From positions 1 to 39,858 of the forward strand of contig WELB01000158.1 of assembly GCA_009602725.1 (NCBI GenBank): a stretch of 39,858 nt of DNA, in the 5' to 3' direction. Origin of the DNA: Spirogloea muscicola. Lineage: Eukaryota; Streptophyta; Zygnematophyceae; Spirogloeales; Spirogloeaceae. Shown here piece after piece: positions 7,640 through 39,858 of the stretch (position 1 is its first letter; each line of letters starts with the position of its first letter). Made by a program: the position numbers and the translations under genes. The notes under the pieces are model-generated. The model made no database searches, was not told the origin of the DNA, and saw only the letters and a list, made by a program, of their open reading frames with translations.

Positions 7640-8085
7640 AATTCGGATATGAAAGAATCGGCTGTGAAATGCCAGCCAGATGCATACAGGTGTTCATGAC
7701 GGAGCCAAAGGCTAGGCAGACAGGGCGCCCTCAATACCCCCGTGTCAGCAGTAGGAAGTCAGATGAGCTGAGGGGAGGAAGAGCAACCCCGCTGCGCAAG
7801 CCAGAGGCTGCTGCAAGGGCGCGACCAGCGCGGCGGTGCAAAGCAAGCGCTTGGGAGCGCTGCAGGGACATAGACAGTCGCATACGGTAGCAGGACACCA
7901 GACCCAAAGGCACCGAGCCACCGGGAAGGGCAGCACCCTGCTCCCGGCGCCGCTGGTCAGCTTGAGAGGCCAGCAGCGAAAGTAACGAGGACCACCGACC
8001 CCCGTAACACCCATGGATGTCCATGGCCAGGGGGTAAAAGGTATCACCCGCCGGGTGGTCCTTATTCGGAGGAGAGTCCCCGCAT
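7640..8085 (-). mobile_element. LINE 3' end with type d tail
   Basis: The minus strand reads DHPAGDTFYPLAMDIHGCYG, RWSSLLSLLASQAD, CYRMRLSMSLQRSQALALHR, AGRALAAASGL, SSSDFLLLTRGY, stop. The UTR GGGCGCCCTGTCTGCCTAGC follows, then ATGCATCTGGCTGGCATTTC with ACAGCCGATTCTTTCAT (type d hairpin). It is nearly identical to 21885-22400 on the same strand and to the short plus copy at 23240-23400. The 5' break is about 30 bp before the GCC-rich leader of the next gene. Confidence 0.85.
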
Positions 8086-18086: not shown

Positions 18087-18345
18087 CCTGTCTGCCTAGC
18101 CTGTGCTTCCGTCCTGAACACCCGTATGCATCTGGCTTGCTTTTACAGCCGCTCGTGTAATCTCGGCAGCGGCATTCTTTCCATTTCACGCGCAGTGCGC
18201 CCCTCCTCTCTCTCTTTGGGCTAACCTCTCGCAGCCATTGCCTTACATTGGAAGAGCTCTTTCTCTTTGCCAGCTTGCATTCACATCTTTGAGTCAACGA
18301 CAGAGTGAAAGACTCTTCCACTAGAGGGCGATTGCTGTAGCCAGC
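18087..18345 (+). repeat. LINE tails d and e after the 412-aa ORF
   Basis: GTGCCTGTCTGCCTAGCC and ATGCATCTGGCTTGC with TTTTACAGCCGC are the UTR and hairpin of the type d LINE. At about 18172-18290 a type e/f tail follows (CATTTCACGCGCAG; GGGCTAACCTCTCGCAGCC; ACATTGGAAGAGCTC). 18300-18345 is an inverted relative of the latter (AAGACTCTTCCAC). Confidence 0.65.
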
Positions 18346-21884: not shown

Positions 21885-22620
21885 AGAGAATGCGGCTGCT
21901 GACATTTAACTTTCGGCTGTAAACTGCCAGCATACAGGTGCTCATAACGGAGCCAAAGGCTAGGCAGACAGGGCGCCCTCAATAACCCGTGTCAGCAGTA
22001 GGAAGTCAGATGAGCTGAGGGGAGGAAGAGCAACCCCGTAGCGCAAACCAGAGGCTGCTGCAATGGCGCGACCAGCCCGGTGATGCAAAGCAATCGCCTG
22101 GGACCGCTGTAGGCACATGGATAATGGATAAGGCAGGATACAAGACCCCAAGGGACTGGGCCACCGGGAAGGGCTGCACCCTGTTCCCGGTGCTGCTGGT
22201 CAGCTTGAGAGGTCAGCAGCGAAAGTAATGAGGACCACCGACCCCCGTAACACCCATAGATGTCCATGGCCAGGGAGAAGGCGCGCGGGGCGCATGAAAT
22301 GGAATGGAGGCCAATTCAGGCCGACACATTGTTCAGGCAGAGTCCACGGCCAGGGGGTAAAAGGTATCACCCGCCGGGTAGTCCTTGTAATTGTGCAACT
22401 TCTTCTGTTCGGCCACCTTCTCGACAAAGCCGGTCTCAGAAGTAATGGGGCCTTTCGTCCGGAAGCTGTCGGTTAGGACGTCCGTGAGGAGCCGCTTGCC
22501 ACCTCCCAGGGGGACGCCAACCAGATCGACACGCCTCGTCCGAGGGACCCCGTCGCGAAGTTGGACGGGCATCACCATCATCTCAGAGGCCGGCAGAGCG
22601 ACGAGTGATAGACGGGTCGG
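21885..22620 (-). mobile_element. LINE copy with endonuclease-like region and type d tail
   Basis: Minus strand: MPVQLRDGVPRTRRVDLVGV, GGGKRLLTDVLTDSFRTKG, VEKVAEQKKLHNYKDYPAG, DTFYPLAVD, then a 67-bp insertion (22276-22342). DIYGCYGGRWSSLLSLLTSQ follows, then LCITGLVAPLQQ or equivalents in shifted frames. The C-terminus SSDFLLLTRV is damaged at the end (R-V instead of R-G-Y). The type d UTR and hairpin (GGCTGGCAGTTTACAGCCG type) lie at 21889-21935. Sister of 7640-8085, extending about 230 bp further upstream. Confidence 0.82.
22276..22342 (-). mobile_element. 67-bp tail-only insertion (type f) with target-site duplication
   Basis: Flanked by TCCATGGCCAGGG (22263-22275) and TCCACGGCCAGGG (22343-22355), 12 of 13 identical. 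The sister LINE at 8019-8045 has the uninterrupted site. On the minus strand the insert starts CTCTGCCTGAACAATG, has the stem GGCCTGAATTGGCC and ends GCGCGCCTTCT. Other copies: 30975-31045, 34632-34702, 31240-31300 and 26520-26570. Confidence 0.85.
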
Positions 22621-23090
22621 CCGCTGCCGCCATCGCAGCTGCCTTGTGCAGCGACAGCAGTTGCGGCTCTCGACCGGATGGGACACCGCAGATGGGCCTG
22701 GCGACGCTGCCGGCCCGCCGCAGCGCGGGGCGGAAGCGTGGAATGGCTGGGGCTGCGCCAGACGGAGGGCGCGTGCGCGAGAGCGGCAGCCCTGACGCCG
22801 CGCAGGCCATCGCACGGCGGCCCAGCACCGCGAGGGGCTCGGCCCTGCTCCACGCCGCCATGGCAGCCGCTCGCCCGGTGGGCCGTGAGGCTCGGCTGCG
22901 TCCACGAGGCCTCCAACCCGGCGCCGTTGGCCTCAACCGCGGCGGCGGCGATGGTGGCGGCGGTGGCGGTGGCGGTGGCGGTGGCGACGGCTGCGGCGCG
23001 GTGTGGAACGGCGTAGGAGCACCTCCCAGGGGGCCGGCTGGACCATGGATTCGCCAGGGGGGGCCCAGCAGGCTTCCCTGCCGGGTGACA
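22621..23090. other. GC-rich stretch with a GGC/GGT repeat
   Basis: A (GGCGGT)n-like run lies at about 22940-22995. Long readings exist on both strands, but they are Pro/Arg/Gly-rich compositional ORFs without recognisable motifs. Confidence 0.4.
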
Positions 23091-23600: not shown

Positions 23601-25623
23601 ATGGACGACTTGCCGGATGAGTGCCTCTCCGCGGTGCTGGAGCGCGCCGCCGCCAGGCCAGAGGCCCCGCCAGCTTGGGCCGCCATCGCAGGAGTGTGCC
23701 GCGGTGGCGCCGCCTTGCCCGAGCCGCCATCACGGAGGTCTCTCTGCGGGTCCCGGGTGTTTAAACCAACTACCCCCGGCGGCGGCGGGAGCCGGCGGTG
23801 GTGGGCCCTGCGCTAGTCGCCACCTTCCCCTCTCTGACGCGCCTCAGTCTTGCCTTCAGCTTCGTGCGAGGCCGCTGCCACGCCACCGAACTCAGCCTCC
23901 TGTCGACTATCACGACGCTCACCGACTTGCGAGTCAGGCTGGCAGCGCCTCCTTTTCCTAAAGACGAGTTCGACGCTGAAGACCTGCAGCGCACCATTGG
24001 GGCCATAAGCATGCTCAGCAACATTGTGCGAGCGCTCACATCACATGACACGGATCTTCATTTGTCCCTGGCTGACATTGCCGGCTTCATGGCACTTGAG
24101 AGCCTCGCTTTGGAATGCTCGCGAGCTGCTGGTAATTTCCTCATGCTATTGGGTATCGCCCAATGTCTTGCTGCATGCTTCTACTTGCTCCACGCACAAA
24201 TATTGTCTATAAGCGACAACTCCCTTTCTCATGCAGTTGCAGATACTCCAGTGCTGACTTTGATATCCTCTCATCTCAAGCAGATGCAGACATACACATC
24301 ATTGCTGCTGCTTGCCGGTGCCTGACAGGATTTGAGCTGTGGCTCTCTCCTGACACCCTGGGGACACACTCGTATACTCGCATCACTGACATTGGCGCGG
24401 AATATTGGATTTCAATCTCTAAGCATATGCCCTAGCTTTGCAAACTCCACATCCGAGGCTGCCGCAGCATTACGGACAATGGGATTAGGCAGTTGGCCGA
24501 GGGTTGCCCACTGCTGCAAGATTTTCGCGTGCAAGACTGCCCCAATCTCTGGACTGGACAATGTGATTATGAGATCCTGGCGACGTGCCCTGAGATGAGG
24601 AGGCTGCGTTGTCAACAAAGCTGGAGCTGCTATTGGCTGCAGTCCCTGCAGACTGCAATTATATCAAGGCTGGAAGTACTGGAGCTTTACGTGCCCAATG
24701 AAGAGGGTGTCGCCTCTACTGCCATGGCTATCCTGGCTTCATGCTGCATACGATTGCGTGAACTACAATTGCACACATCACATAAAGATGTCATCAGGCC
24801 CGACCCCTTTGAGAACTGCCCACCCATGCCAGCGCTTGTGAGACTGTCAATGAGGAAGATTGTAGCGAGGAATACATCCTTCATGGCGTTCATACGCAAT
24901 GCCCCCCAACTGGAGAGACTGAGCTTAGAGGCTTGCAAGTTGGTTGGTACAACACAGGCGCCACCCGAGCAGGCGCTACCAGTCACGACTTCTCTCCGCT
25001 TCCTTGAGTGTGACAAGATGTACATTGGGACATCAGTTGACTTCTGGAAATTTGGTGGATGGTGCCCCAACCTGCACTCCTTGGTGACGAGCACGCCAAT
25101 TTTTGGACGCGAGATTTTGGCTACATCATTTGCGGGATGCAGCAGGTTGGTGACTCTCACAGTCATGGTCTGGTCTGGTCCGACCAGACCCGGACTGGAG
25201 AATATGGATCGTCAAGAGCTACTCGTCTGGACCTGTCCTCCACTGGGGGCCCTGAGAACTCTCATCTGCACGAGTGTGCATTGGCAAGACTTGGCTGCAA
25301 TAGCAAAGGCGTCCCCGCATCTGCGAGAAGTGCACTTAAGAGCCTGCATGACTGCACGGATGGAGTCAGTCCTTGACCTTCTCTCTTCGTGCCCCGAACT
25401 CAATTACATCAGATTCCGGGAAGCGTATGCTTCGAACTCGCCGGCTCGCTTAGCAAAGGAATGGCATGTTCTCCGAGGGCATGTATGTGAAATAGTGCAC
25501 TTAGGAATTGTAGATGGAGACTGGGGACTCGATTGGGGTGATTGTGATCCAGATCGCTTTGAGACGGTCCATATTACATATCGTGTCCATCGATGTGGAC
25601 AATGCTTCAGCCACTCTCATTGA
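23601..25623 (+). pseudogene. F-box/leucine-rich-repeat protein gene, disrupted
   Basis: The start MDDLPDECLSAVLERAA, then WAAIAGVCR, is a typical F-box; the expected continuation WRRLARAAITEVSLRV is in the +2 frame, so an indel lies near 23703. FPSLTRLSLAF and ALESLALECSRAA follow. A GT-AG intron fits 24132-24236, but the next exon is in the wrong frame. From 24238 a single frame runs to TGA at 25623 with one in-frame TAG at 24433, between ISKHMP and LCKLHIRGC. The repeats ITDNGIRQLAEGCPLLQDF, LERLSLEACKLVG and LREVHLRACMTARMES are AMN1/FBXL-type. Such proteins are substrate receptors of SCF ubiquitin ligases. Three separate defects suggest a recent pseudogene, or sequencing errors in a real gene. 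Confidence 0.75.
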
Positions 25624-26519: not shown

Positions 26520-26665
26520 CACATGCATTGGCCACCCTTCATTTCATGCGCACGGCGCGCCTTCTCTCTCTTTGGCTGACCTCTCGCAGCCATTGCCTTA
26601 CATTGGTAGAGTTCCTTTTCTTTGCCAGCTTGCATTCACATTCCTGAGTGGAACGAGAGAGAGAA
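26520..26665 (+). repeat. LINE tails f and e
   Basis: TTCATTTCATGCGCACGGC (type f end) followed by TGGCTGACCTCTCGCAGCC and TTACATTGGTAGAGTTCC (type e), nearly identical to 18172-18290. Confidence 0.7.
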
Positions 26666-27284: not shown

Positions 27285-27332
27285 ACTAGTCTCTCTGACC
27301 TTCGGCTGCTCAACAGGGCAATTTGACCCTTT
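27285..27332 (+). mobile_element. Terminal codons of another LINE copy
   Basis: TSLSDLRLLNRAI at 27290-27325 is the end of a decayed LINE C-terminus, joined directly to the start of the next copy. Confidence 0.6.
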
Positions 27333-28480
27333 CCGCACCTTGCGCACACCGCTAACCTGCGCGTCCAAGCGCGCTTCGCGGCCGTCGTCGACAAGGCCGC
27401 CTACACCACCGCCGTGCTGCAGCTTCCTGAGGCTGACCTGCGCGGGCGCGCGAGACTACATTCGGCCTCCTCCCCGGGGGCAGCGGCGTGGCTCCAGGCA
27501 CTCCCCATCACTGACGCCCTGACCCTCCCAGATGAGGTGTTTCGCACTGCCGTCCACCGGCTCCTGGGGCTGCCGCCTCCATGCCTCCAGGGCGTGCGTC
27601 AATGCCAGTGTGGCGAGCGAGGGGCCAAGCCTGGCGAGCTGGCTGCTCACGTCCTGCGCTGTTCCCATGGCGGCGAGAGGACGGCGGCCCACGACCGCCT
27701 CCGGGACGCGATGCACAGCATCCTGGTGGAGGCTGGCTTCGCGGTGGCAGCGGAGCACTCCGGCGTCATGCCGCTCCAGGCCAGGGCCGACGGTCTCCAC
27801 GCTCGTCGCGTCGACCTGGTGGCCACCCCACAGGCCGGCGGGCCACGTCTGCTTCTGGATGTGGTGACTACCGACGCATTTGACCGCTCCCACCCAGCCC
27901 AGTCTGCCACCAAGGCTGGGTATGCGGTCGCCTGCGCCGCTCGGGCAAAAGAGATCAAGTACGCCGACCATCCACCGGAAGACGAGTTCTTCCCGTTGGC
28001 AATTGACATCCATGGGGCACTGGGCGCTCGGTGGCTTGAGCTACTTAACCAGCTCGCCCGCCACGCAATCGCCCGTCGCTTCCATGGTGAACCGGTAGAC
28101 TTTCCTGCAGCCGGGTCGCTGGCGCAAGTGTATCGCATGCGCTTGGCCGTCTCGCTGCAGAGGTCCATGGCCCGTGCGCTGCACCTTCGTGCCGGGAGAG
28201 CCCTCGCTGCTGCCTCTGGCTCTGTCCAGGGGACCCACTTCCAGGACCCTAGCCTCTCTGATTTGCGGCTGCTTAGCAGGGGTTACTGAGTAATTTGTAG
28301 CTGCTTTCTTTCTTTGTGTGCTTTGGTTTCTTAGCGCTTCCTCTGGCTTCCTCTGGCCCCCTTCTCGTTCTTTGTTCATTCTTTTTTGGGCTGAATTTGA
28401 GCACCAAGTGGCCGCTTGAGTCGGTGTGTGCTTTAGCGGTTCTCTGGGCTGGGCTATCACAGGTAGTCGCCCTATATATA
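27333..28480 (+). mobile_element. Best-preserved LINE C-terminal segment, with open frame 27414-28289
   Basis: 5'-truncated non-LTR retrotransposon. The open frame (291 residues from 27414, extending in frame upstream to HTANLRVQARF) ends at TGA 28287-28289. Residues 64-83 hold a Cys/His cluster (C64-x-C66, H79, C83), as in the zinc knuckle ahead of restriction-like endonucleases in R2/NeSL-type LINEs. Residues 131-150 (RRVDLVATP ... LLLDVVTTD) fit the R-x-D ... D pattern of a PD-(D/E)XK nuclease, with Lys179/182 as possible catalytic lysines. Residues 186-206 (HPPEDEFFPLAIDIHGALGA) and 236-291 (SLAQVYRMRLAVSLQRSMAR to SDLRLLSRGY) are the segments repeated across the window. The endonuclease would nick the target for target-primed reverse transcription. 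The polymerase part is missing. The clade assignment is inferred; no search was run. Confidence 0.85.
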
Positions 28481-30172: not shown

Positions 30173-30720
30173 AAGCAGCCGCAGGTCGGAGAAATTGGGC
30201 TCCTGGTTGAAATATTTCTTGCTCCGCCTGCCCTTGTCTTCCACGTTCTACAACCTGTACTTGCTGTTCACGTTCTGCAAAATGTACCTGTCCTTCATGT
30301 CCTACAGCCATCACTTCCTGTCTTGATGTGGGAGGACCAGCAGGCCGTCCCCGTCTTGGCGCAAATGCAGACGCAGACGCAGATATGGTCACAAAGAATT
30401 CAGAATGAGACAAAGGCTTGCCTGATTACACGCAGAGCCGGCGAGCACTCAGCTCCACCTGGCCGCACACAGGGCTGTCGCGCACACTGCGCCGCCTTGC
30501 CGCACACAGCACTGTCTTGCACACAGCGCCGCCTCGCCGCACACAGAGCCGCCGCGCACAGCGCCGGCTAGCCGCACACAGAGCCGCGAGATTGTTCGGG
30601 CCAATAATGCAATCTGCCGGGGCCTCCCTCATCTAGGGACTCTCAATTGCCTCGCAGAATGGGCGGAATGGGTGATTTTACCGACCCACTGATTCACCAT
30701 ATTTTGAAATTCAGCACTGG
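30173..30720 (-). mobile_element. Copia LTR with start of gag (minus)
   Basis: Matches 36363-36925 in reverse orientation. Minus strand from 30720: ATGGTGAATCAGTGGGTCGG, the GCC/CAC-rich internal repeats, CGTGTAATCAGGCAAGCC, then MAVGHEGQVHFAEREQQVQV with VERGRQGQAEQE of gag. The reading begins after the LTR as in the other two copies. Gag is cut off after about 60 codons. Confidence 0.75.
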
Positions 30721-30974: not shown

Positions 30975-31200
30975 GCTACCCTTGCCTGAACAATGTATCA
31001 GCTTAATTGGCCCCCATTTCACTTCATGCGCCTCGCGCGCCTTCTCTCCTCTTCGGCGCTCGGGTCTACAGCGCTCCCAAGCACTCGCATTACACCAGCG
31101 TGCTGGGTGTGCATTACGGCAGGCTAATGGCTTCCGTGGTGGTGGTCTGGCTCCTCAGCTTAGCTTGTCAGATATGCATGTGCTCACTCGCGGTAGTGTC
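30975..31200 (+). mobile_element. Type f tail followed by a short LINE C-terminus
   Basis: CTTGCCTGAACAATGTATC, ATTGGCCCCCATTTCAC and CGCGCGCCTTCTCT (tail f, 30978-31045), then SGLQRSQALALHQRAGCALR with LSDMHVLTRGS (the stop is replaced by read-on codons). Confidence 0.7.
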
Positions 31201-31239: not shown

Positions 31240-31315
31240 AGGGCTAGAATTAGCCTTCCTTTCAATTTTATGCGCACCGCGCGCGCCTTCTTCTTCTTCC
31301 TCTTCCCGGAACTCT
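31240..31315 (+). repeat. Type f tail
   Basis: GGCTAGAATTAGCC stem, TTTCAATTTTATGCGCACC, GCGCGCGCCTTCTTC. The stem differs from GGCCTGAATTGGCC at paired positions, keeping the hairpin. Confidence 0.65.
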
Positions 31316-32830: not shown

Positions 32831-34334
32831 CTGTTATTGTCCCTGCATCTGTTTCTGTCCCTGCATCTGTTTCTGTTTCTGTACCTGTTTATTCAAATTG
32901 AAGAAATCTTTTCTCTCCTACCTGTTAGAGTAGCTCCATCTTTCTCGATCGCAGAAATCATCTTCAAAAGTAACCCGATACCACTTTTGAGCAGCTGGGG
33001 ACAGACAACAAGTTTGCTGCCAGGGCAGGTACATGCAACACATCTTTCAATAGCTGCTCATTGATGCCATTCAAACTAGGCACCTGCACACGAACTTGAC
33101 CCACTCCAACAGCAGGTTGTGTACTATCATCTCCCAAGAAAACCCTGAGAGGAGCAATGCGTTCATACTTCTCAAGCCAATAATGTCAATGCGTAAAGTG
33201 ATGCGTGGCGCCACTGTCAATCAGCCAACTGTTTTTAGATGACTTGACCTGTCCTCCACATAGATGGGCTTGACCCACAGTTTATCTCTTGCTACCTCAA
33301 CCTCTGTAGTCATCACTCAGAACCTGCCGTTTGGAAAATTGTTGACCATGTGACCAGGTTGGCAACAATAATAACATATTCTGTCATCTGGCTGATGTCG
33401 CTTGCCATCATCCCTACTTAGGTCGATCCAGAGGGTCCCTAAATATACCCTGTCATCTGTCTGATGTCGCCTGCCATCACTCCACTTGGTTTTATCCAGA
33501 TGATCCCAAAGATCTGGCTCCATAATCCGTGTGACCATCAGTGCTGCATTCATTCCCTGCATAGCACGTTTCTGCTCTTCCATCTCCCTCTCCTTATAAA
33601 GAAGACAGGTCAGAACAAACTCCACACTTGAATCATTCATGGTGGCCATCAGGATTGCATCCCTTACAGCGCCATACTCTGGTGGCAGTCCCATCGTACT
33701 GGCAAGAACCTGATGCTGAACTGCCACTTCTGCTCCATGTCATGTAGCTGCAGTGCCAAGACCTCCACTCTATTCACAAACTCCTGTATGCCTTCATCCT
33801 CTTCCTTATCACACTCTCTGAGACACATACGAAGGTTATATGCTCTATCAGTGCCTCTATTCTCGAACTTGAACCTCAAGAGATCCCATATCTGACTGGC
33901 TAATGAATTAGTGACTAGACCAATCAACTCTTCATCAGATATGTTTGCCATTAAAATTGCTGATGCTGCCTGATTCTGTCTTGAGGTGGTCCGACACGAC
34001 CCACGAGCTGAAATGGGTTCTACAGCATCCCAGACTTCTTGGTATTGAAGTAGTCTTGTCATCTTCCACTTCCATACTGTCCAGTTTGTCTCTCGAGATA
34101 ATTTGGGGCTAAGAACAGGACGTGAGCCGCCCAGTGGGCCCATAACCTGAAGGTTTTCTTGCTCTGCCTGCCCTTGTCTTCTACGTTCAACAACCTGTAC
34201 TTGCTGTTCACGTTCTACAGTTTGTACCTGTCCTTCATGTTGTACAGCCATCACTTCCTGTCTTGATGTGGGAGGACCGGCAGACCGTCCTCGTCCTGGC
34301 GCGCAGATGCTGGCGCAGACGCAGATGCACTCAT
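32831..34334 (-). mobile_element. Copia gag and protease region (minus, frameshifted)
   Basis: Start at 34334 (MSASASAPAS); early frameshift, then MAVQHEGQVQTVEREQQVQV, WTVWKWKMTRLLQYQEVWDA, ASAILMANISDEELIG. A one-base deletion near 33725 moves gag to the frame of HQVLASTMGLPPEYG through MNAALMVTRIMEPDLWDHL to the zinc knuckle CYYCCQPGHMVNNF, whose last Cys is Phe. After a stop (33317), LIDSGATHHFT at about 33220 is the aspartic protease active site; LLKDVLHVPALAANLLSVPS follows. It ends in a Gln-codon-rich simple repeat at 32832-32890. Non-functional. Confidence 0.88.
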
Positions 34335-34605
34335 GATCACAAAGGATTCAGAGTAATACAAAGACTTGCCTGATTACATTACAGAGCCGATGAGCACTCA
34401 GCTCCACTGGCCGCACACAGAGATGGCAAGCACACAGCGCCGCCTCGTCACACACAGAGCCGCCGCGCACACAGCGCCCCCTCGCCGCAGACAGAGCCAC
34501 CGCGCACACAGCGCCGACTCGCCGCACACAGAGCCGCCGCGCACACAGCGCCGCCTAGCCGCCCTCAGAGCCACGAGATCGTTCGGGCCAATAATGCGGT
34601 CTGCC
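34335..34605 (-). repeat. Copia LTR, partial (minus), with internal repeats
   Basis: Homologous to 36480-36740. Contains several approximately 36-bp units alternating CACACAGCGCCGCC and CACACAGAGCCGCC. Truncated at about 34604 (GCCAATAATGC) by a c/f tail. Confidence 0.75.
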
Positions 34606-34763
34606 AAGAAGGTGCTCGCCCATTGAGAAGAGAGAGAAGGCGCGCGGGGCGCATGAATTGAAAGGGAGGCCAATTCAAGCCAATACATTGTTCAGGCAGA
34701 GTCGAGTGCAGACTAAACAATGCTACATAATACGGAGACCTAATCTAAGGTACCTAAGATGAC
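34605..34763 (-). repeat. Tails c and f, minus strand
   Basis: TTCTCAATGGGCGAGCACC (c-type end) and the f-type tail CTCTGCCTGAACAATGTATT with GGCTTGAATTGGCC and GCGCCCCGCGCGCCTTCTC. Confidence 0.7.
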
Positions 34764-35337
34764 ATTAGTACCCACGGGTGAGCACAAACGAATCTGACAA
34801 GCTAACTTGGGGAGCTGGAGCGCCGCCACGAAACCCGGAGGCCTGACTTAAAGCGCGCCCTGCACGTTGATGAAGAGCCAATGCTTGCGAGCGCTGCAAA
34901 CTAAGTGAGAGCCGCATTCTGTGACATGCAACTAAGGCCTGCGGAATGCTGGAGTGGCCCAAGCTGCCCCCCCGACTTCGACGACGCGCATCAACCAGCC
35001 GGGCCAGATGCTGGATCAGGGAGGACCACTTTACGCCGTAGCCTCCGTAGATATCTATGGCACACGGATAAAGATGGTCCCTCGGGGATGGTCCTGGTAG
35101 TGCCGCTCCTTCTTGCGCTCCGCGCTGGACGTGGCCCAGCCAGACACGGTTGACGTGGGTGCGCCAGCCCTGTACGCGTCGATCAGTACCACGTCCAGGA
35201 GCAGACGAGGCCCACCGCCCCGGGGGTGGCGACCACGTCCAGACGACGCACGTATGGCTAGCCACGCCTTGAGGAGATTGGCATGACGTCGGACACCTCC
35301 ATCGCCGGCTAATAGCCCGCCTCTCGCACAATTCCAA
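34764..35337 (-). mobile_element. LINE 3' copy, minus strand
   Basis: RRLDVVATPGG-like sequence in a shifted frame (GVASHTCVVWTWSPPPGRW), then RDHLYPCAIDIYGGYGVKWS, SLIQHLARLVDARRRSRGG, ACHRMRLSLSLQRSQALALH, QRAGRALSQASGFRGG, SDSFVLTRGY-stop (34766). 5'-truncated near 35337; one frameshift near 35140. Confidence 0.85.
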
Positions 35338-35374
35338 ACATAGTCCCTGAGGAGAAAAAGATCACTTCATTTTG

Positions 35375-36335
35375 AATAAACAGGTACAGAAACAGAAACA
35401 GATGCAGGGACAGAAACAGATGCAGAAACAGGGACAGGAAGAGGAGACAGGAACAGGTGCAGGGCCAAGCATATCAGACTGTGATATCGCAAGCAAAGCA
35501 ATGGCATGCACGATTGGGACATCCTAATATCCAGAGCATGCAACAAACACAAAGCTTGGTGCGTGGATTGGATGTTGTTCCTACTGAACCTGATTTTAGT
35601 TCAGCTTGTGTGCGAGGTAAACTTCATCTTCAACCTCCAGTTGCTAGCGGACGTTGGAGGGCTTCTGATTTGTCAGATCTGGAAAATTCTGGTGTTTGTG
35701 GACCTATGCAAACATCATCTTAAGGAGGGAGTAGATACATTCTCTCACTCATCGATGATGCCAGCAGGTGGAGTAGAGTATGTTCTCAATAGAACAAAAG
35801 TGAAGTGTTTGACAAGTTTAAAGTTTTCAAAGCTGCAGTTGCAAGCAGGGCGAAAAGTCATTCTCTTCGAAATCAACAACGGTGGAAAGTATTTATCTAA
35901 AGAGTTTGAAAGCTTTTGTCAGCAACAGGGAATACGCAGGCAGTTGACTGCAGCGTCGTCCGCAACCAAACGGAGTCGCAGAGAGATGGAACAGAAGTGT
36001 GATGGAGACTGCCAGGTGCTTATTGTATCTTTACTCTATGCCACCTACGTTTTGGGCTTAAGCACGGCAGTATATCTCAAGAGTAGGTTACGCACTCGTG
36101 CCATGAAAATATGACACCATATCAATTCTGGACAGGGAAGAAGCCTACAGTGGCTCATCTCAGGGTGTTTGGTTGTGCAGCGTGGATGCACATCCCAACT
36201 GAAACACGACACAAGCTGCAACCAAACGCTCGTCAGTGTGTCATGGTAGGTTTTGGTGATCAATTGAAAGGGTGGAAATTATTCGATCTTGAGAAACGGA
36301 GGATGGTATTTAGCAGAGATGTAGAAGTCTACTAG
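35375..36335 (+). mobile_element. Copia pre-integrase and integrase fragment
   Basis: Begins in the Gln-rich simple repeat (CAGAAACAGATGCAGGGAC), then AKQWHARLGHPNIQSMQQTQ (pre-integrase; His of the H-x3-H-type zinc site visible in WHARLGH), ACVRGKLHLQPP, VCGPMQTSS, ILSLIDDASRW in another frame, KEFESFCQQQGIRRQLTA (integrase core end). A 60-80 codon gap follows where the expected N-G-x-A-E-R-x-N-R-T motif is destroyed, then TPYQFWTGKKPTVAHLRVFG, CAAWMHIPTETRHKLQPNAR and WKLFDLEKRRMVFSRDVEVY, stop 36335. Reverse transcriptase and RNase H are absent. Confidence 0.88.
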
Positions 36336-36362: not shown

Positions 36363-36743
36363 AGTGTTGAACATAGCGATATGGTAAACCAGTGGGTCGG
36401 TAGGATCACCCATTCCGCCCCTTCTGCTAGGCCGATGAGAGTCTCCTAGATTAGGGAGGCCCTGGCAGACTGCATTATTGGCCCGAACGATCTCGTGGCT
36501 CTAAGTGCGGCTAGGCGGCGTTGTGTGCGCGGCAGCTCTGAGAGCGGTGCGAGGCGGCGCTGTGTGCGCGGCGGCTCTGTGTATGGCGAGGCGGCGCTGT
36601 CTGTGTGCGCGGCGTCTCTGTGTGTGACAAGGCGGCGATGTGTGCTTGCCAACTGTGTGTGCAGCCAGGTGGAGCTGAGTTCCCATCGGCACTCTGTGTG
36701 TAATCAGGCAAGTCTTTGTGTTACTTTGAATCCTATGTGATCA
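36363..36743 (+). repeat. Copia LTR (plus)
   Basis: Starts near AGTGTTGAACATAGCGATA; TG start typical of LTRs. Includes GTGGGTCGGTAGGATCACCC, a tandem array of GGCGGCGCTGTGTGCGCGGC-like units (about 36510-36650), and TGTGTAATCAGGCAAGTC. Exact ends and the primer-binding site are not resolved. Confidence 0.7.
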
Positions 36744-36925
36744 TGAGTGCATCTGCGTCTGCGTCCGCATCTGCGCCAAGACGAGGACGGTCTGCCGGTC
36801 CTCCCACATTGAGACAGGAATTGATGGCTGTAGGACATGAAGGATAGGTACAAATTGCAGAACGTGAACAGCAGGTACAGGTTGTTGAACGTGGAAGACA
36901 AGGGCAGGCAGAGCAAGAAAACTTT
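36744..36925 (+). mobile_element. Copia gag N-terminus (plus)
   Basis: MSASASASASAPRRGRSAGP then PTLRQELMAVGHEG and TAG, continuing as VQIAEREQQVQVVERGRQGQ to AEQEN. Follows the LTR at 36363-36743 in the normal order (LTR then gag), so a second element begins here and is cut off. Confidence 0.8.
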
Positions 36926-37281
36926 CGGGGAGAGCCACTTTCTCCCAAGCTCTGGCTAGTCATCAGCGTGCTGGGGCGCAGCTCCATGTCAGCCACTGGC
37001 TTCGGTGGCGGTGCTCCGGCTCCCCAAATTAGGCTGTCGGTTTCGTACGTGCTTAGTCATCAATTGACATCCCTTTCTCAGCCTGCGTTCACACTGTTAC
37101 CTAAGGCCCCCATTGCAGAGGGCTTCATGTAGCCCCACTAATTACTATGTGAATAGTCCTTCCTCGTCGATTCGCAATACTGCACAAGTCGATGAGCATA
37201 CATCGCAGTCAAGAGACCTAAGTTGTGGACCAATGGTGTAGGCCCAGCACGAAGTCCACACTCATTTAAACAAATCGCATA
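36926..37281. other. Intergenic, 3' flank of tryptophan synthase alpha
   Basis: No coding signal. It lies downstream of the tryptophan synthase alpha stop codon and probably contains its 3' UTR; no confident polyadenylation signal was seen. Confidence 0.45.

Positions 37282-39600: not shown

Positions 39601-39858
<258 letters not shown>

What the first reader, a model, noticed from the sequence alone, without database searches (positions are those of the whole stretch)
22263..22355. 67-bp tail-only insertion with a 13-bp target-site duplication
The insert 22276-22342 lies in a LINE copy whose sister at 7640-8085 has the empty site. The duplication TCCATGGCCAGGG/TCCACGGCCAGGG brackets an insert that is nothing but a type f tail with no poly(A). 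It defines the exact element 3' end (GCGCGCCTTCT) and shows that tails alone are mobilised, either as extreme 5' truncations or as a minimal SINE-like parasite.
Basis: seen in the sequence. Interest (0 to 1): 0.8.

Follow-up and report, generated by a model that had tools for sequence, protein, structure and literature searches.

The report
Extremely truncated R2-like LINE insertion
The 67-base insert is the far end of an R2-like jumping element that copied only its last bases into a related element; it is one of a continuous range of such fragments and not a tiny independent parasite.

Summary
A 67-bp insert (22276-22342, element on the minus strand) lies in a LINE ORF between copies of a 13-14 bp target duplication with one mismatch; 30 listed genomic places show the empty site. 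Of the two readings offered, 5' truncation holds and the SINE fails. The insert is the 3' half of a 130-nt LINE 3'UTR; the family has RT, C2H2 and RLE-type motifs. In 86 copies chosen only by an exact 21-nt 3' end, lengths run from 23 to 1222 bp, median 116; 10 of 86 fall at 60-75 bp, against 6, 7 and 9 in neighbouring 16-bp bins. Duplications scoring 6 or more occur in 38 of 78 copies, against 11% with swapped flanks. The 3' end is not exact: a short CT repeat of variable length follows CTTCT. Unexpectedly, other insertions of different length and tail type use the same or nearly the same nick in other host copies, with duplications of 5-14 bp, one insert being only 17-19 nt. A control for that hot site did not complete. 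A new member of a known kind.

The parts
22276..22342 (-). tail-only insert: last 66-69 nt of the 3'UTR of an RLE LINE (type f tail), 5'-truncated
22263..22275 (.). target-site duplication, copy next to the element 3' end
22343..22355 (.). target-site duplication, copy next to the element 5' end (one mismatch)
21913..22275 (-). host LINE, 3' part: ORF end and following sequence
22343..22932 (-). host LINE, 5' part: open frame with RLE-like VDLVGVPLGGGKRLLTDV, cut by the insert after FYPLAVD
7654..8085 (-). sister host LINE copy with the empty site; its ORF ends at 7731
34630..35351 (-). longer copy (about 720 bp) of the same tail family: ORF end, stop at 34765, 130-nt 3'UTR, tail 34635-34701
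30983..31045 (+). another short copy of the family, about 63 bp
31247..31291 (+). tail of a type g copy: its shorter, different 3'UTR shares the last ~45 nt; the copy itself goes on upstream
26524..26565 (+). short tail copy, about 42 bp
18171..18207 (+). diverged tail, about 37 bp, weak match
   Evidence: E 0.021
27327..28289 (+). open C-terminal ORF of a related LINE: CCHC-like knuckle, RLE core, KEIKY (KX2KY), GARW

Best explanation
The insert is an extremely 5'-truncated copy of a non-LTR retrotransposon of the restriction-like-endonuclease (R2-like) type, made by target-primed reverse transcription. The endonuclease nicked the purine strand of a pyrimidine-rich site (CCCC|CTGG) in a related LINE. 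The CT-rich 3' end of the element RNA was used as template from that nick, and reverse transcription ended after about 67 nt. The second strand was cut 13-14 bp away and filled in, giving the duplication. Shown by sequence: insert, duplication, empty sites, identity with the LINE 3'UTR, continuous length range, recurrent junction. Inferred: the biochemical steps, early stop of the RT, and base-pairing of the CT end with the target.
For: 30 listed empty sites, 29 with a 14-bp and one with a 16-bp overlap. In 68 of 77 de-duplicated copies that hold the start of the insert sequence, the median homologous reach exceeds 75 nt, and the longest shared run is about 1370 bp. The tail ends 130 nt after a LINE stop codon. 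Among 150 matches to the family's ORF end, a few lie in frames of about 1300 aa; 2361 bases fetched from one are open throughout, with a C2H2-like finger and RT (PF00078 E 9.4e-16). RLE-type motifs: CCHC-like knuckle, D-x14-D core, KX2(K/H)Y, GX2W (definitions from passages of PMC5678591). Best PDB matches of the RT are R2 proteins. 86 copies: lengths 23-1222, no discrete peak. Duplications scoring 6 or more in 38 of 78 vs 11% null, 7 or more in 30 of 78 vs 4.3%. Bases between CTTCT and the duplication are none, C, CT, CTC or CTCT in 29 of 30.
Against: 40 of 78 copies have no duplication scoring 6 or more. Pfam found nothing in three C-terminal parts and four sub-threshold, unrelated hits in a fourth; PDB searches with that part gave nothing usable; the predicted fold was too poor to use (pLDDT 41.8). 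So the endonuclease rests on motifs. The 60-70 bp bin holds 9 of 86 copies against 2-6 in each other 10-bp bin from 50 to 150: too few to call a peak, but not nothing.
Confidence: 0.93

Rival explanations
1. A discrete minimal SINE of about 67 nt that borrows the LINE tail and is transcribed and mobilised on its own.
For: Two window copies are of about this length (22276-22342 and 30983-31045); 10 of 86 copies are 60-75 bp long and the 60-70 bin is the fullest 10-bp bin.
Against: Continuous lengths 23-1222 bp with 6, 7 and 9 copies in neighbouring 16-bp bins; in 68 of 77 copies the median homology goes on upstream of the insert's start; the third window copy, 34635-34701, only seems to start there because the query does: it goes on for about 720 bp; no A- or B-box match.
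Confidence: 0.03
2. Non-retrotranspositional origin: the insert arrived by gene conversion, filler DNA at a double-strand break or template switching during repair, and the flanking repeat is a repair by-product.
For: About half of the copies lack clear duplications; at the hot site L003, L004 and L007 have left flanks that are not host LINE.
Against: Common 3' end, CT-repeat junctions, and duplications far above the swapped-flank control; recurrent 3' junction with variable duplication length.
Confidence: 0.03
3. The shared host position is not a preferred cleavage site but one old insertion inherited by many host copies.
For: All lie in copies of one host LINE family.
Against: The inserts differ in length (17-19, 67, about 90, about 335 and about 665 bp between the flanks), in tail type (f and g) and in duplication length (5-14 bp), and 30 listed places are empty. 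No host phylogeny was made.
Confidence: 0.04

Closest known systems
R2 and other restriction-like-endonuclease LINEs (CRE, R2, R4, NeSL, HERO, Utopia clades)
   Same: Long ORF with N-terminal C2H2 fingers, RT, C-terminal knuckle and KX2KY-type RLE; no poly(A) after the tail; recurrent 3' junction with varied 5' side and duplication length, as PMC4640811 reports for Utopia (no duplication in arthropods, 20 bp in reptiles; passages).
   Different: Not confined to one rDNA, snRNA or leader gene: inserts into many pyrimidine-rich places, also into related LINEs; knuckle spacing is CX1CX11-12HX3C, not the CX2-3CX7-8HX4C given in PMC5678591.
HERO-clade RLE LINEs
   Same: PMC4640811 says this clade contains many non-specific elements and some with microsatellite targets (passage).
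   Different: Clade membership untested: no reference RT sequences of the clades were fetched for a tree.
SINEs that share a LINE 3' tail
   Same: A short sequence ends in the same 3' tail as a LINE (general knowledge, recalled).
   Different: No independent 5' head seen, no promoter-box match, no fixed length.

Membership tests
RLE (R2-like) LINE | Long ORF with reverse transcriptase | tested here: met
   L097: uninterrupted stop-to-stop frame of 1338 aa, PF00078 8.5e-16; same-family L138: 787 aa open stretch, PF00078 9.4e-16
RLE (R2-like) LINE | A single ORF in the element | not tested
   5' ends of full-length elements were not determined
RLE (R2-like) LINE | N-terminal C2H2 zinc fingers | tested here: met
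   by motif: two in L097, one in L138; Pfam scores below the curated cut-off, none reported for L138
[quoted passage not shown]
   a CCHC-like motif is there but with other spacing, e.g. CQCGERGAKPGELAAHVLRC (definition)
RLE (R2-like) LINE | PD-(D/E)XK variant core with KX2KY and GXW downstream | tested here: inconclusive
   motifs present: VDLVATPQAGGPRLLLDV, KEIKY, GARW; in the f family LDVVATPRGGGPRLLLDV, KERHY, GLKW. GX2W rather than GXW, H for the second K in the f family; fold model unusable
RLE (R2-like) LINE | RT closest to R2 among solved structures | tested here: met
   9nl3, 9nl2, 9dou E about 1e-6 for L097; 9nl2 E 0.0043 for L138, ahead of retron/group II RTs at 0.07 and above
RLE (R2-like) LINE | Placement in a named clade by RT tree | not tested
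   no clade reference sequences fetched
SINE | Discrete length with a common 5' end | tested here: not met
SINE | Internal RNA polymerase III promoter boxes | tested here: not met
   no A- or B-box pattern match in the 67 nt (patterns recalled)
Product of target-primed reverse transcription | Target-site duplications above chance with a common 3' end | tested here: met
   about half of the copies lack one scoring 6 or more

The most novel reading that the evidence does not exclude
An RLE LINE group that has lost single-gene targeting and cuts pyrimidine tracts chosen by pairing with its CT-repeat 3' end, with one bond in the ORF of sister LINEs as a favoured target, so that the elements keep disabling one another; at that bond the first-strand nick is fixed while product length (17 nt to about 665 bp) and second-strand cut (5-14 bp) vary, a natural series for TPRT.
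Probability: 0.3. Interest if true: 0.5.

Novelty: new member of a known kind. Interest (0 to 1): 0.36.

Why it matters
The insert itself is an ordinary retrotransposition product. The useful part is the set: more than a thousand exact copies of an RLE LINE tail with no poly(A), mostly short where sampled, and several insertions at or beside one phosphodiester bond that differ in cDNA length and second-strand cut. That lets first-strand and second-strand steps of TPRT be read apart in natural data. It also shows an insert of only 17-19 nt, of a size that repeat annotation would easily miss.

Tried and rejected
Discrete SINE: rejected on the length table. An early sample of 46 copies suggested a lack of copies under 60 bp (3, against 15 at 60-99); with 86 copies it vanished (13, 21 and 18 in successive 40-bp bins, p 0.23 for the first two).

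RNA structure of the tail: two short stems (GGCY/RGCC and GCGC/GCGC) pair in 94% of cells of an alignment of 29 hand-picked tails, against 19-68% when slid, but no pair has a compensatory change and shuffles do as well (94.1%); single fold z -1.5. Not evidence of structure.

TGG after the pyrimidine run: 20% of 132 vs 10% background, but 16 of 117 (14%, p 0.12) after dropping the loci fetched through the hot site. Dropped.

Fold of the RLE part: five-sequence alignment, pLDDT 41.8, so no fold search was made. Rfam: no match in the window at the gathering threshold.

Hot-site control: I wanted to count tail junctions at three other stretches of the same host LINE. These pattern searches did not complete, so the hot site is judged only against random expectation: 6 exact junctions among 333 exact sites against 0.28 expected even for 20,000 tails (20,000 is my extrapolation from five good tails in the 40-kb window). 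Insertions elsewhere in host copies do occur (for instance in L080 and L024).

Papers: PMC5678591, PMC4640811 and PMC5348765 were seen as passages only. Searches for RLE LINEs with algae, pyrimidine targets and truncation listed no paper whose title or abstract start describes this family; two searches showed 15 of 463 and 12 of 13 papers, and I did not read the listed papers beyond the three named.

Full report
WHAT IS THERE. The window is a stretch of contig C158 of an unnamed 153-Mb assembly in 471 contigs; I take it for a eukaryote from size and LINE content. On the minus strand the insert 22276-22342 reads CTCTGCCTGAACAATG...GCGCGCCTTCT and is followed at once by CCCTGGCCATGGA, which also stands before it as CCCTGGCCGTGGA. 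The sister copy 7640-8085 and 30 places in the table (40 candidates scored of 1564) have the flanks abutting, 29 with an overlap of 14 bp and one with 16. The focal duplication is 14 bp with one mismatch, score 11; 156 combinations of focal and foreign flanks reach at most 7.

WHAT THE INSERT IS. The exact last 21 nt occur 617+664 times, control 0, and a 16-nt marker from the 5' part of the family 1075+1113 times with up to one mismatch, control 0+1. Of 77 de-duplicated copies that hold the start of the insert sequence (fetched as best matches or by the marker), 68 have a median homologous reach above 75 nt, with very different extents; the longest shared run is about 1370 bp. A few of the 77 have another body upstream (for instance L049, L056). 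In longer copies a LINE ORF end (..SLSDLFVLTRGY stop) lies 130 nt before the end of the tail, so the insert is the 3' half of a 3'UTR. Among 150 matches to this ORF end, a few lie in frames of about 1300 aa, such as C12 (1316 aa) and C105 (1292 aa). The 2361 bases fetched from the C12 copy are open throughout, with a C2H2-like finger and a reverse transcriptase. A related LINE, L097, has an uninterrupted 1338-aa frame: two C2H2-like fingers, RT, CCHC-like knuckle, RLE-type core with KELKY. Its best PDB matches are R2 proteins. KX2KY as the catalytic lysine motif of LINE endonucleases is taken from passages of PMC5678591.

Lengths: 23 to 1222 bp, median 116, five cut off by the fetched stretch. 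13 are under 60 bp; 6 at 44-59, 10 at 60-75, 7 at 76-91, 9 at 92-107. The 60-70 bin is the fullest (9), but nothing like a discrete element stands out. Lengths of 23-27 are hardly longer than the anchor and are approximate; the exact anchor also favours well-kept copies. Duplications: 78 of 86 usable (dropped: five cut off, three with too little or masked flank); 38 of 78 score 6 or more against 11.2% with swapped flanks, 30 score 7 or more against 4.3%, 10 score 9 or more against 0.5%; the longest are 13 bp. So duplications are real but short and not detectable in about half of the copies. The focal one is at the long end.

THE 3' END AND THE TARGET. In the 30 copies with a duplication scoring 7 or more, the bases between CTTCT and the duplication are none (14), C (5), CT (4), CTC (4), CTCT (2) and once CTTCTC: the element ends in CTTCT plus a variable CT repeat. 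The 12 bases upstream of the 5' junction are 73% pyrimidine against 58% at -25 to -40 (44 copies). That the CT end pairs with the target is an inference. Tails with different bodies and 3'UTR lengths (about 92-95 and 130 nt) share the last 45-66 nt, which fits a 3' end kept by the enzyme. Folding did not support a structure.

THE HOT SITE. The host is itself the ORF end of a related LINE (FYPLAMDIHGCYGGRW). In other copies of it, other tails join at the same base or close by. On the empty-site query the 3' junction is at 546 in the window (duplication 13-14 bp), at 547 in L002 (7 bp), L005 (6), L006 (6), L009 (10, type g tail) and L003 (left flank not host); L004 and L007 join at 544, in a run of C, with left flanks that are not host, and L008 at 538 (6 bp). 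L139 has the same junction as the window with only 17-19 nt of tail and a duplication of about 5 bp. The inserts differ in length and type, so I take them as independent; a host tree was not made. Exact counts: 333 copies of CCTGGCCATGGACAT, 6 of them within 12 bp of a tail end. Random expectation is 0.28 for 20,000 tails of all types, an upper guess. The control that would set this site against other pyrimidine tracts of the host did not complete, and insertions elsewhere in host copies exist (L080, L024), so how special the site is stays open. L002-L009 were fetched with a query that holds this junction, and their number is therefore no frequency.

MECHANISM AND STATUS. A recurrent first-strand nick, template read from the CT end of the RNA, early stop, and a second-strand cut 5-14 bp away explain all parts. 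This is target-primed reverse transcription of the R2 kind; in PMC4640811 (passages) Utopia elements likewise have precise 3' and varied 5' boundaries and duplications from none to 20 bp. Shown here: anatomy, lengths, duplications, recurrence. Inferred: enzyme steps. The clade was not determined. I rate it a new member of a known kind.

Noticed in passing
window 39601-39858: A 69-bp unit repeated twice (98%) followed by 122 A's up to the end of the window.
   Followed up: no
L139, minus strand, about 222-264 of the 501 bases: An f-type tail that stops inside GGCCTCCCTTCTTT and lacks the last ~25 nt, inserted in the same host LINE: possibly internal priming at an upstream CTTCT.
   Followed up: partly
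L076 8380-8471; L006 1443-1547; L041 1453-1586: Tails lying directly behind tails, one of them only about 25 nt, as if one tail end were the target of the next insertion.
   Followed up: no
window 30209-30702, 34146-34606, 36379-36929: Three copies, two orientations, of a stretch with a 37-bp GC-rich tandem repeat.
   Followed up: no
G000 matches: A run of places with the same score (548.6 bits, 96%) to the ORF end but different open-frame lengths, as if one recent source had spawned many truncated copies.
   Followed up: no
window 24436-25623: Open frame that looks like an LRR/F-box protein (impression from the letters, not searched).
   Followed up: no
window 33664-34347 and 35485-36114: Frames resembling Ty1/copia gag and integrase pieces (impression, not searched).
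   Followed up: no
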